Shown piece after piece: positions 39,110 to 41,407 of a stretch of 64,000 bases of DNA. The DNA comes from Massilia atriviolacea (lineage in GTDB: Bacteria > Pseudomonadota > Gammaproteobacteria > Burkholderiales > Burkholderiaceae_D), in NCBI RefSeq assembly GCF_003953935.1, contig NZ_RXLQ01000004.1, positions 124,001 to 188,000 of the forward strand. Reading direction: 5' to 3'. Below the pieces are notes generated by a model that was given only the letters and a program-made list of their open reading frames with translations, was not told where the DNA came from and did not search any database. The first letter of the stretch is position 1. Each line of letters starts with the position of its first letter. Made by a program: the position numbers and the translations under genes.

Positions 39110-40384
39110 CTAACGGCGGCCGCGGAACAACTGGGGCAGCAGGCTGGCGAGGCGGGCGCGCTCGTCGCCCTGGGCGCGGTGCAGCGCCTGCTGCGGGCCG
39201 TGCAGGAACTTGGCGGTCAGGCCCTTGGAGAGGGCGTCCAGCACGGCGTCGACATCGTCGCCGCGCGCCAGCATTTTTTTGGCGCGTTCGAGTTCGAACA
39301 GGCGCATCGCTTCGCTATTTTCTTGCAGGTCCTGGATCACCGGCACCATGGCGCGGTCGTCGATCCAGTGCATGAAGGACTGCACGCGCGTTTCGATGAT
39401 GGCCTCGGCCTGGGCCACGGCGGCCTGGCGGCTTTCCAGCCCGGTCTGGACCACCTGTCCGAGGTCGTCGACGGTGTACAGGAAGACGTCGTCGAGGCGG
39501 CCGACTTCCGGTTCGATATCGCGCGGCACGGCCAGGTCGACCATGAACATCGGCTTGTGGCGGCGCGCCTTGATCGCCCGTTCGACCAGGCCCAGGCCGA
39601 TCAGCGGCAGCGAGGACGCGGTGCAGGAGATGACGATGTCGAACTGCGCCAGCTGCTCGGGCAGGGCGGCCAGGCGGATCGCCTTGCCGTTGAAGCGGTG
39701 CGCCAGCGTTTCGCCGCGCTCCATGGTGCGGTTGGCGATGGTGATGTTCTTCGGGTTCTGGGCCGCGAAGTGCGTGGCGCACAGTTCGATCATTTCGCCG
39801 GCGCCGATGAACAGCACGTTCTGGTCGGAGATCTTGTCGAAGATGCGCTGCGACAGGCGCACCGCGGCGGCCGCCATCGACACGCTGTGGGCCCCGATTT
39901 CGGTAGTGGTGCGCACTTCCTTGGCCACCGAAAAACTGCGCTGGAACAGCTGGTGCAGGTAGGTGCCCAGGCCCCCGGCTTCGTCGGCCAGGCGCATCGC
40001 GTCCTTCATCTGGCCGAGGATCTGCGGTTCGCCCAGCACCATGGAGTCGAGCCCGGAGGCGACCCGGAATGCATGACGCACGGCGGCATCGTGCGGCAGC
40101 ATGTACAGATGCGGGCGCAGTTCGGCGAAGTTGAGCTTGTGGTAGTCGGCCAGGAAGTGGGCGCTCGCATCGAGCGGGTTGGCGACGTCGCTGGCGGCGT
40201 ACATCTCGGTGCGGTTGCAGGTCGAGAGGATGGCCGCTTCGTCGCCGCCGCGGTTGTCGATGCGGGCAAACCAGCCGCGCGCCGCCTGCACCGCCTGGCC
40301 GAGCTGGTCGGGCGCGAGCGCCAGCTGCTCGCGAAGCGAGACCGGTGCGGTGGTGTGGTTGAGGCCGACGGCGAGCAGTTGCAT
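39110..40384 (-). CDS. hemA: Glutamyl-tRNA reductase
   Basis: 424-residue NADPH-dependent enzyme that makes glutamate-1-semialdehyde, the first step of C5 tetrapyrrole synthesis. It begins [22 protein letters not shown]; the catalytic Cys is in [17 protein letters not shown]-binding is [18 protein letters not shown], and [29 protein letters not shown] is conserved. A minus-strand TATAAT at 40419-40414, about 30 bases before the ATG, is a likely own promoter. Confidence 0.96.
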
Positions 40385-40562
40385 GGCTTTACAGTGTACG
40401 GAGGTATGCCGGCATTATACCGTGATGTGGCAATGGCCTACCGAAAGGAGGGGTTTTTGGTGCAGGAGGGCAACGCTTGGGAGCGATGAAGCGGGACAGC
40501 GGGGGCGCTGGTTGCCGGATCGGCAATCGGGAATCAGCTGAACCATTGGCGAACATGCCGGT

Positions 40563-40691
40563 CAAACAATGACAAACCCGCCGGGAGGCGGGTTTGGCGG
40601 AATTCTGGATGGCCCCGGCGGACCGGGGCCAAGATCGGACCTAGTGTCATCACCAGTAAGGGTGGCTGGGAGAGGACATTCCTAGGGCTGC
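40563..40691 (-). ncRNA. Candidate structured small RNA, family not recognised
   Basis: A roughly 129-base transcript is predicted from a TTGATT-16-TATAAT promoter at 40725-40698 to a terminator at 40595-40565. From 5' to 3' the RNA has a nested stem (CCUAG/CUAGG, UGUC/GACA, CCAG/CUGG, with a CCACCCUUA apical loop), then an 8-base-pair GC stem with UCCG tetraloop (40630-40611), then the terminator hairpin. It matches none of 6S, SRP, tmRNA or RNase P signatures. It is divergent from a HEPN Abi-family gene and upstream of hemA on the same strand, so an attenuated hemA leader is the alternative. Confidence 0.5.
40574..40595 (-). terminator. Terminator of the candidate small RNA
   Basis: AAACCCGCC and GGCGGGTTT form a 9-base-pair hairpin with a four-base loop. 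On the minus strand it runs into TTTGTCATTGTTT, an interrupted T tract. Confidence 0.6.
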
Positions 40692-40697
40692 GACAAA

Positions 40698-40725
40698 ATT
40701 ATAGCACCCTGTGCCTAAAAATCAA
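40698..40725 (-). promoter_or_regulatory. Near-consensus sigma-70 promoter
   Basis: On the minus strand TTGATT (40725-40720) and a perfect TATAAT (40703-40698) are 16 bases apart. The predicted transcription start is near 40691, and the only thing transcribed before the terminator is the candidate small RNA. Confidence 0.65.
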
Positions 40726-40737
40726 GCAGGTACCGAT

Positions 40738-41379
40738 ATGAAATGGACCGACCTGGAACGACATTTTTCAGCTGCCAGGCTGGGCCGTTACTGGGCCTTG
40801 TGCCCGGGCGATGAAGCCAAGGCCGCATCCGTGTATGTGAACAATATGCTGCTGGCTGGCGCGATGACACCCATGCTGAGTGTCCTGGAAATTGCGCTCA
40901 GAAATGGTATTCACAGTCGCATGTCCGCGCTGTACCGGCGGCCCGACTGGTGGGAAGTATTGGCAGGCAATCCGGCCTTTGCGCGCCAGACCAAGGAGGT
41001 CAACGGCGCAAAGGAGCGGCTGCAACGGCGTGCCGAAAGCGCCACCTCCGACAAAATTGTGGCGGAGTTAAACTTCGGTTTCTGGAGTTCGCTCTTCAAC
41101 GGCAGCTTCGCAACTGTCGTCTGGAAAGACCTGCGCCTGGCATTTCCGCACTGTCCGAAACCGCTGCGCAAGCGAAAGGCCATCTCATCGGCACTGAATC
41201 AGATGCGCGACTTGCGCAATCGGGTATTCCACCACGAGCCGCTATTGTGGTTGCGCCCCGGCCTGCTCGATTTGCACGCCAGGGGAACGGAAGTGATCGG
41301 CTGGATCGATCCCCAGCTGGCGCGATGGCTGGCCAGCTACGATCCCCTGCCTGCCGCATGGGCCGCTTGCCGGCCGTGA
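40738..41379 (+). CDS. Abi-family HEPN-domain protein
   Basis: 213-residue, all-helical protein resembling Abi-family abortive-infection proteins. Family stretches: an N-terminal LERHFSAARLGRYWALCPGD, LSVLEIALRNGIHSRM, KIVAELNFGFWSSLFNGSF, and a C-terminal HEPN ribonuclease motif RNRVFHHEP (R160, N161, H165). No membrane segment was seen. The ATG at 40738 is chosen; an in-frame GTG lies at 40711. Its base composition is lower in GC than the surrounding housekeeping genes. HEPN Abi proteins are RNA-cleaving toxins or phage-defence effectors. The gene is divergent from the candidate small RNA and converges on the response-regulator gene. Confidence 0.8.
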   Translation: MKWTDLERHFSAARLGRYWALCPGDEAKAASVYVNNMLLAGAMTPMLSVLEIALRNGIHSRMSALYRRPDWWEVLAGNPAFARQTKEVNGAKERLQRRAESATSDKIVAELNFGFWSSLFNGSFATVVWKDLRLAFPHCPKPLRKRKAISSALNQMRDLRNRVFHHEPLLWLRPGLLDLHARGTEVIGWIDPQLARWLASYDPLPAAWAACRP

Positions 41380-41407
41380 CAGCATCCGGCTGGCGCTGCC
41401 TCAGTGC

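What the first reader, a model, noticed from the sequence alone, without database searches (positions are those of the whole stretch)
40563..40691. Orphan small RNA with nested stem, UCCG-capped GC stem and terminator
The predicted transcript folds almost completely: CCUAG/CUAGG, UGUC/GACA and CCAG/CUGG helices nested around a CCACCCUUA loop, then an 8-base-pair stem with tetraloop UCCG, then a 9-base-pair terminator. This density of complementary segments in 129 bases is unlikely in non-functional spacer. It does not resemble 6S, SRP, tmRNA or RNase P RNA. A pyrimidine-rich exposed segment (UCCUCUCCC) could pair with GGAG ribosome binding sites. A hemA leader with an attenuator is the main alternative.
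Basis: partly seen in the sequence, partly recalled or inferred. Interest (0 to 1): 0.55.

Follow-up and report, generated by a model that had tools for sequence, protein, structure and literature searches.

The report
RNA partner of an AbiF-like toxin
A small, strongly conserved RNA next to hemA turns out to be the likely RNA antitoxin of a phage-defence ribonuclease gene encoded back-to-back with it, and intact copies of the RNA also exist without the toxin.

Summary
In detail: on the minus strand (40691..40568) there is a compact RNA gene with its own sigma-70-type promoter, a nested 5' domain, a GC hairpin and a terminator. The interpretation needs correcting. It is not an orphan and not a hemA leader. 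Its partner is the gene 46 nt away on the other strand (40738..41379), a 213-aa HEPN ribonuclease whose predicted structure matches the AbiF-ncRNA complex 8VZ6 (Z 13.4). Homologous RNAs lie beside homologous abi genes in beta- and gammaproteobacteria, on plasmids and in viral contigs, mostly divergent, once convergent, once as a tandem pair. Base pairs covary strongly. The RNA type follows one supported clade of Abi proteins. It is not in Rfam 15 and fails the known abiF RNA model (RF03085). Most likely it is the RNA antitoxin of an AbiF-type (type III-like) system, encoded divergently instead of co-transcribed. In two sister genomes abi is gone while the RNA core is intact; in another genus 8 of 11 copies found by a strict scan lie in genomes without a detected AbiF relative, which suggests stand-alone antitoxin RNAs. 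Antitoxin action is inferred by analogy, not shown. A published set of AbiF RNA models could not be checked.

The parts
40698..40725 (-). Promoter of the RNA: TTGATT, 16 nt, TGC-TATAAT (extended -10)
   Evidence: Only promoter-like site found in 40380-40780, 10 of 12 matches; 0.2 expected in shuffles. A TATAAT/TATACT-like -10 is visible in most homologues.
40568..40691 (-). The RNA gene, about 120 nt; 5' end predicted from the promoter and the conserved GCAGCC, 3' end from the terminator
   Evidence: Alignment A2 of 23 homologues; covariation; folding
40640..40691 (-). Conserved 5' domain P1-P3: CCUAG/CUAGG, GUC/GAC, CCAG/CUGG with conserved internal-loop strands; predicted protein-binding part (inferred)
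   Evidence: Core alignments A6 and A7: 96.9% of 420 cells paired, 39 cells with changes on both sides against 9.8 shuffled
40610..40631 (-). GC hairpin H2, 9 bp with UCCG loop; sequence varies, pairing kept
   Evidence: 8 of 9 pairs have changes on both sides
40573..40596 (-). Intrinsic-terminator-like stem, CAAACCCGCC-UCCC-GGCGGGUUUG; T-rich tail is weak here and better in several relatives
   Evidence: alignment
40738..41379 (+). Divergent abi gene, 213 aa, AbiF-like HEPN ribonuclease (predicted toxin/effector)
   Evidence: PADLOC PD-T4-5 E 5.8e-14; Pfam Abi_2 17.3 bits, below the 25.6 cut-off; AlphaFold2 pLDDT 92.5; 8VZ6 Z 13.4 over 201 residues; dN 0.08, dS 0.52 against L023
41215..41232 (+). 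HEPN catalytic motif R160-N-R-V-F-H165
   Evidence: R160, N161 and H165 invariant in 29 aligned sequences
40481..41403 (.). Approximate extent of the inserted abi-RNA cassette between a response-regulator gene and hemA
   Evidence: Homology with the empty-site genome G016 breaks off and resumes at these points
40414..40419 (-). TATAAT before hemA, kept with or without the cassette; probable hemA -10 element
   Evidence: Sequence comparison (not called as a promoter by the scan)

Best explanation
The RNA is the cognate RNA antitoxin of the AbiF-like HEPN ribonuclease encoded divergently beside it. Shown by computation: a real RNA gene with covarying structure, genetically linked to and following one clade of AbiF-like proteins, but able to sit divergent, convergent, duplicated or alone, so it should act in trans. 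Inferred: the RNA promoter keeps the RNA in excess; the conserved P1-P3 domain binds the HEPN protein, as the ncRNA does in the published AbiF complexes, and blocks the RX4H active site; phage infection, or loss of the plasmid or island, lowers the RNA and frees the RNase, which cleaves RNA and stops growth. The GC hairpin and terminator would give stability and a defined 3' end. The pair moves as a small cassette and here landed between a response-regulator gene and hemA.
For: On a tree of 51 Abi proteins all 20 RNA-bearing rows lie in one supported clade of 21 (98/97); label changes 2 against 15.9 in shuffles, 0 of 500 as low. In these rows the RNA lies about 45-260 nt from abi. In 398 sampled genomes of the phylum the RNA core was found in 6; in 4 it lies beside an Abi gene, although only 22 of 398 have one at 1e-10. 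Two of these four (G000, G180) were in the model; of the four genomes not in it, 2 (G762, G420) lie beside Abi. Orientation varies while linkage is kept: convergent in G180, two tandem copies in G762. The predicted Abi fold matches PbAbiF-ncRNA 8VZ6, Z 13.4, next best 4.8. Related AbiFCd is toxic and neutralised in trans by an RNA that binds it (PMC12373285, abstract and sections 6, 7, 11-13 read). Abi can be lost while the RNA stays: G004 and G008 lack abi, G013's is split in two frames.
Against: No binding, toxicity or expression data. In one genus 8 of 11 RNA-bearing genomes have no AbiF relative at E <= 1e-8 (an upper estimate). Of 4 credible RNAs in 399 Burkholderiales genomes, 2 (G227, G173) have no Abi gene beside them. 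9 of 16 opened plasmid loci, which I chose from 60 RNA hits, have no Abi in the 1.5-5 kb flank (in L038 and L040 the RNA 5' end is degenerate or lost). So the RNA may have a life of its own. In G004 and G008 the core is almost unchanged without abi (1 of 53 against 47 of 184 in the spacer), which a pure antitoxin would not need, unless the losses are recent. A truncated and a broken Abi gene (L017, L030) have no RNA. L130, on a long and unsure branch in the clade, has no model hit.
Confidence: 0.74

Rival explanations
1. The RNA is a sensor or activator, not just an inhibitor: it holds the HEPN RNase inactive and releases it, or guides it, when it meets a phage RNA or protein, a forerunner of a crRNA.
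For: AbiD/F HEPN proteins are the proposed ancestors of Cas13 (PMC12165695, passages; PMC12737573, passages). The internal-loop strands are unusually conserved, which would fit recognition of a constant partner.
Against: No variable guide-like stretch is seen: the fast-changing parts are paired stems, hairpin loops and short linkers.
Confidence: 0.12
2. A free-standing regulatory small RNA that pairs with mRNAs, with abi linked for another reason.
For: Stand-alone copies with intact core and compensatory P1 changes in several genomes; conserved pyrimidine-rich strand.
Against: The pyrimidine strand is mostly paired in the consensus fold. The RNA type follows the Abi clade. No neighbour gene common to all 11 stand-alone loci compared was found. 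mRNA targets were not searched for.
Confidence: 0.09
3. Antisense (type I) control of abi mRNA.
For: Short gap to abi; the predicted duplex with the abi 5' region is within the best 5% of 200 (mononucleotide) shuffles for the window (9), L026 (0) and L035 (7).
Against: In the other 11 of 14 loci tested at least 44 of 200 shuffles do as well; the L035 value used an annotated start that tblastn contradicts. The RNA does not overlap abi in these divergent loci.
Confidence: 0.03
4. hemA leader with attenuator.
For: It lies upstream of hemA on the same strand.
Against: 5 of 40 genomes have it; empty sites in G010 and G016; plasmid copies without an annotated hemA in the flank; about 190 nt and a TATAAT between the terminator and hemA.
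Confidence: 0.01
5. Non-functional spacer that folds by chance.
For: GC-rich region.
Against: Covariation; core mismatch 4 of 530 against 368 of 1761 in the adjacent spacer among five sister genomes.
Confidence: 0.005

Closest known systems
AbiFCd-RCd22 of Clostridioides difficile phage phi027 / phiC2 (PMC12373285)
   Same: AbiD/F-type HEPN RNase with RX4H; small structured RNA of about 100-130 nt beside the gene, own promoter and terminator; RNA acts in trans by binding the protein (published there)
   Different: RCd22 is upstream on the same strand with read-through into abiF and carries two abiF motifs; here the RNA is divergent, has one core motif of another sequence, and cannot be the abi leader
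abiF RNA, Rfam RF03085
   Same: A closing stem, an inner hairpin and a CCUCU pyrimidine stretch (consensus seen); linked to AbiF
   Different: No RF03085 match at the window RNA even at E <= 5; different inner stem, a conserved GGUGANGA strand, different gene order
PbAbiF with ncRNA, PDB 8VZ6
   Same: Fold of the predicted Abi protein: Z 13.4, rmsd 3.2, 201 aligned; Foldseek probability 1.00, E 0.076
   Different: 13% identity; the chain is 297 residues against 213; the RNA sequence was not compared
PD-T4-5 (Vassallo et al. 2022, PMC9519451)
   Same: Plasmid-borne defence gene described there as a distant relative of AbiF/D and TA-like (passages); best PADLOC model for the window protein, E 5.8e-14
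   Different: No RNA partner is mentioned in the passages seen
Type III toxin-antitoxin systems ToxIN, TenpIN, CptIN
   Same: RNA antitoxin that binds an RNase toxin, as a working principle (as told in PMC12373285)
   Different: HEPN fold, not the ToxN fold (recalled); no tandem repeat array in the window; no co-transcription

Membership tests
abiF RNA (RF03085) | Covariance-model score at or above gathering (37 bits) | tested here: not met
   No RF03085 match in the window at gathering nor in 40400-40760 at E <= 5; the same tool finds it in phiC2 at 37.6 bits
abiF RNA (RF03085) | Upstream of and co-transcribed with abiF, as in RCd22 | tested here: not met
   RNA on the minus strand, abi on the plus strand
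AbiF/AbiD HEPN proteins | AbiF fold | tested here: met
   Predicted model, 8VZ6_A Z 13.4, 201 of 213 residues; a prediction, not an experiment
AbiF/AbiD HEPN proteins | HEPN motif R-polar-xxx-H | tested here: met
   R160 N161 ... H165, invariant in 29 sequences
Abi_2 (PF07751) | Pfam gathering score 25.6 | tested here: not met
   17.3 bits, E 0.006
PD-T4-5 (PADLOC) | Profile match over most of the model | tested here: inconclusive
   E 5.8e-14, model positions 30-208 of 309
Type III toxin-antitoxin | RNA neutralises the toxin by direct binding | not testable with these tools
   Needs bench work
Type III toxin-antitoxin | Array of RNA repeats before the toxin gene on the same strand | tested here: not met
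   One RNA unit, opposite strand; G762 has two separate units, also divergent
6S, SRP, tmRNA, RNase P and other Rfam families | Gathering score of the family | tested here: not met
   0 matches in the 64-kb window
hemA leader / attenuator | Present upstream of hemA in relatives | tested here: not met
   5 of 40 genomes; empty sites

The most novel reading that the evidence does not exclude
The stand-alone copies are selected in their own right: cells, islands and plasmids without AbiF keep an intact antitoxin RNA that disarms incoming AbiF elements, an RNA-level anti-addiction or immunity device. The same RNA family would then be used on both sides of a conflict between mobile elements, and the divergent gene order would be what lets the RNA part easily from its toxin.
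Probability: 0.35. Interest if true: 0.75.

Novelty: new variant of a known kind. Interest (0 to 1): 0.62.

Why it matters
AbiF-type HEPN RNases are the proposed ancestors of Cas13, and how their RNAs changed from antitoxin to guide is named as an open question in a review (PMC12737573, passages). This family gives a second RNA solution to the same protein fold, with a small conserved core, strong covariation and an unusual gene order. It makes protein-RNA co-evolution testable across a single clade. The stand-alone copies offer a direct test of RNA anti-addiction. It also proposes a function for a gene pair whose protein the plasmid tables call 'Abi family protein' or 'hypothetical protein'; those tables list no RNA genes, so whether the RNA is annotated in the original records is not known.

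Tried and rejected
hemA leader: rejected by empty sites and plasmid copies. Antisense pairing with abi mRNA: no consistent signal. Known Rfam family: none at gathering; the sub-threshold matches (rnk_pseudo 24.7 against 55, P9 17.7 against 43, BjrC174 15.8 against 45 and five more rows) were judged chance. A first full-length model, R1, gave 12 matches of 28-34 bits in 399 Burkholderiales genomes besides four credible ones; seven alignments were seen, four of them of this weak kind, which fit the hairpin and terminator but not P1-P3, and I dropped all 12. The 58-position core model R2 was used after that. R2 found nothing at E <= 10 in 37 of 39 distant Abi loci; the two with hits, L096 and L097, were in the model. 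The IMG/VR pattern scan gave 20 loci, with one short 23.7-bit model hit. No match in the phage collection or the E. coli genomes (query the L042 copy). No PDB sequence relative; the only row was a DARPin at E 0.48. The plus-strand fold was set aside for lack of a promoter. Stand-alone RNAs: a shared neighbour gene was sought and none is common to all. From VIA-align no other family is concluded; families not listed are not excluded. Folding z-scores of divergent regions beside distant Abi genes did not discriminate: the credible RNA of L096 was not flagged on its own strand.

Rows dropped: near-duplicate loci were skipped before alignment; A2 holds 23 of the 30 distinct RNAs (L027, L032, L034, L043 as near-copies, L033 with an insertion, L038 and L040 with degenerate or lost 5' ends left out). 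A6 (21 rows) and A7 (30 rows) are selections of mine. From the tree frameshifted or partial Abi genes (L002, L017, L030, L031, L039, L175), near-identical copies and weaker distant matches were left out; 51 rows were kept.

Print search: in open-licence PubMed Central texts; their listings and the passages opened show no report of a divergent RNA with this clade. The paper of Zilberzwige-Tal et al. was not opened or read; it has its own AbiF covariance models (named in PMC12804078, passages), so this RNA may already be among them.

Full report
What is there. On the minus strand at 40691..40568 lies a small RNA gene. A promoter-like site TTGATT-16-TATAAT with a TG before the -10 ends at 40698, and a 10-pair terminator-like stem lies at 40596..40573. 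These are the only promoter-like site and the better of two terminator-like sites in 40380-40780; shuffles give 0.2 and 0.4. The RNA folds to -53.8 kcal/mol with z -3.77, 0 of 200 shuffles as stable. The reverse strand folds better still (z -4.54), so the strand is argued from the promoter, the terminator and 18 G-U cells. No Rfam family matches at gathering in the window, and RF03085 does not appear in 40400-40760 even at E <= 5.

The partner. 46 nt from the RNA 5' end, on the plus strand, begins a 213-aa ORF (40738..41379). Pfam gives Abi_2 below its cut-off (17.3 against 25.6 bits) and HEPN_Swt1 also below. PADLOC gives PD-T4-5 at 5.8e-14. An AlphaFold2 model from a 29-row alignment has mean pLDDT 92.5. 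Its only clear solved relative is 8VZ6, PbAbiF bound to an ncRNA: Foldseek probability 1.00, E 0.076; VIA Z 13.4, rmsd 3.2, 201 residues, next row Z 4.8. The HEPN motif RNRVFH is present; R160, N161 and H165 are invariant in the 29 sequences. dN and dS against the M. mucilaginosa copy (L023) are 0.079 and 0.523, so the protein is under purifying selection.

Homologues. A blastn search finds the RNA in 60 of 72,556 plasmid records (Aeromonas 24, Pseudomonas 18, Xanthomonas 9, Klebsiella 4 and others). I opened 16 of these RNA loci, chosen for diversity: 7 have an Abi relative in the flank (one of them partial) and 9 do not; L034 and L045 among the nine are near-copies, and L038 and L040 have a degenerate or lost 5' end. 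A scan of genome contigs with the protein gave 8 loci: two Massilia, Undibacterium, Azoarcus, Xanthomonas, Rheinheimera, an uncultured Deefgea and a broken copy in a Pseudogulbenkiania MAG. A viral scan gave one. In 13 of the 14 divergent loci tabulated the distance between the abi ATG and the RNA start is 44-51 nt. The fourteenth, L035, gives 17 from its annotated start and 44 from the start that tblastn supports. L017 (truncated abi) and L030 (broken abi) have no RNA.

Structure by covariation. On 23 RNAs, 98.1% of 672 cells pair; 16 of 30 pairs have changes on both sides against 3.8 in shuffles; slid structures reach at most 6. On the 5' domain alone, with the most divergent copies included (30 sequences), 96.9% of 420 cells pair; 39 cells have changes on both sides against 9.8 shuffled, slid versions reaching at most 5; 6 of 14 pairs have such changes against 3.3 (1 of 500 shuffles as high). 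P1 is CCUAG/CUAGG here, CCCCGGG/CCCGGGG in the viral copy L096 and in G420 (L175), CCAAG/CUUGG in five of the rows and CCAUG/CAUGG in L189. Conserved through this with rare exceptions are the strands CCNCTCCC and GGTGANGA. In G420 the P1 stem runs straight into a T-run, so the smallest form of the RNA is under 60 nt.

Link to a clade of Abi proteins. In 398 sampled genomes of the phylum the core model R2 finds the RNA in 6. In four (G000, G180, G420, G762) it lies beside an Abi gene, split in two frames in G420; 22 of 398 genomes have an Abi match at 1e-10. G000 and G180 contributed to R2, so the fair count is 2 of 4. G603 and G775 have no Abi match. In 399 Burkholderiales genomes R1 gives four credible RNAs (G000, G180, G173, G227), of which G000 and G180 lie beside Abi. 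G180 has the RNA downstream of and convergent with abi. G762 has two RNA units in tandem, each with its own hairpin, divergent from abi. On a tree of 51 Abi proteins, all 20 rows with this RNA lie in one supported clade of 21 (98/97). The label needs 2 changes against 15.9 in shuffles, none of 500 as low, though near relatives cluster anyway. The exception, L130, sits on a long and unsure branch; by my reading it has a related RNA (UCCUCU ... AUGA inside a CCCGGU/ACCGGG stem) but no model match. In the genus of G603, all six Abi matches of 197 bits or more carry the RNA divergently, three of them found only by a local search without filters; the eight further loci examined, of 87-168 bits, had no convincing hit.

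Mobility and loss. In sister genomes with 99% identical HemA, G010 and G016 have an empty site between the response regulator and hemA. G000, G002 and G013 have RNA and abi (split in two frames in G013). G004 and G008 have only the RNA. No Abi was found elsewhere in G004 and G008 at E <= 0.001. Among the five RNA-bearing genomes the core differs at 4 of 530 compared positions and the spacer to hemA at 368 of 1761. Between G004 and G008, both without abi, the figures are 1 of 53 and 47 of 184. Either abi was lost recently or the RNA is still selected.

Stand-alone copies. In 149 genomes of the genus of G603, 11 carry the RNA at E <= 1e-4. Three lie beside an Abi gene; the other eight genomes have no Abi match at 1e-8. 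Because local searches added three more paired RNAs, the strict scan undercounts and the proportion of stand-alone copies is an upper estimate. Six of the eight form a subtype with P1 CCAAG/CUUGG or CCAUG/CAUGG and P2 UUC/GAA, with intact core; two of the six, G603 and G928, are near-identical here. Flanks of several hold antitoxin-like genes: HTH_3, Xre-MbcA-ParS and DUF6088 by Pfam for L150 and L182, with relatives beside others. No neighbour is shared by all.

How it most likely works. In the C. difficile relative the AbiF protein is toxic, mutation of its R202 and H207 removes toxicity, and the RNA neutralises it in trans by binding (PMC12373285: abstract and sections 6, 7, 11-13). The same principle fits here: an RNA transcribed from its own promoter, in excess, binds the HEPN dimer through the conserved P1-P3 domain. 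Binding, toxicity, excess and the trigger are inferred. The difference is the control logic. A divergent RNA cannot set the dose of abi by read-through, as RCd22 does, so the balance must come from two transcription units that face away from each other within about 50 nt. The freedom of orientation and copy number argues for action in trans.

Novelty. The kind is known: AbiF with an RNA antitoxin. The RNA family is not in Rfam 15, and it, the gene order and the stand-alone copies were not found in the texts searched. The main AbiF structure paper was not read, so a match to its own RNA models remains possible. I rate it a new variant of a known kind.

A wider lead. Some Abi genes outside the clade may have other structured RNAs in the same divergent position. 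Of 19 Abi loci scanned upstream (L096 included), 9 have a reverse-strand window with z below -2.5, five of them below -4 (L065, L067, L101, L113, L114; 40 shuffles each). But the credible RNA of L096 is not among them, and single folds range from z -6.3 (L113) and -4.4 (L065) to -0.4 (L100). One search shows promoter-like, C-rich and terminator-like runs by eye. L102 matches the inner hairpin of RF03085 at 17.2 bits, E 0.74, on the divergent strand. This was not tested as a set.

Noticed in passing
L034 and L045 at 1501-1638 (plasmids NZ_CP022176, NZ_CP121793): A copy of the RNA without an Abi match follows the csy3-cas6f genes (and, in L045, repeat units) of a type I-F element; by eye only a remnant of the abi start remains. 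NZ_CP121793 also carries a complete abi-RNA pair elsewhere (L016).
   Followed up: partly
L154/L158 (G762), RNA at L158 1255-1313 and 1013-1071, minus: Two tandem copies of the RNA, each with its own hairpin, divergent from one Abi gene.
   Followed up: partly
L150, L182, L183, L185, L186, L189: Stand-alone RNA subtype (P1 CCAAG/CUUGG or CCAUG/CAUGG) in genomes without an AbiF match; several flanks hold antitoxin-like genes (HTH_3, DUF6088, Xre-MbcA-ParS).
   Followed up: partly
L046 1501-1623 (G227): Intact stand-alone RNA about 13 bp from the 3' end of an AbiTii gene (Pfam 1.2e-43); a distant AbiF relative lies elsewhere in this genome.
   Followed up: no
L065, L067, L100, L102, L107, L113, L115, L162, L166, L168 upstream of the Abi gene: Abi genes outside the clade may have other divergent structured RNAs with C-rich stretches and terminators (by eye; folding scores mixed); L102 matches part of RF03085 at 17.2 bits.
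   Followed up: partly
L006, L032, L033, L043, L044 (rep_cluster_573 plasmids): The RNA is kept with its -10 element while no abi gene is found beside it; tni, IS4, IS6100 or recombinase genes lie nearby.
   Followed up: partly
L020 2939-3578 (G013): The abi gene beside the intact RNA is split in two reading frames.
   Followed up: no
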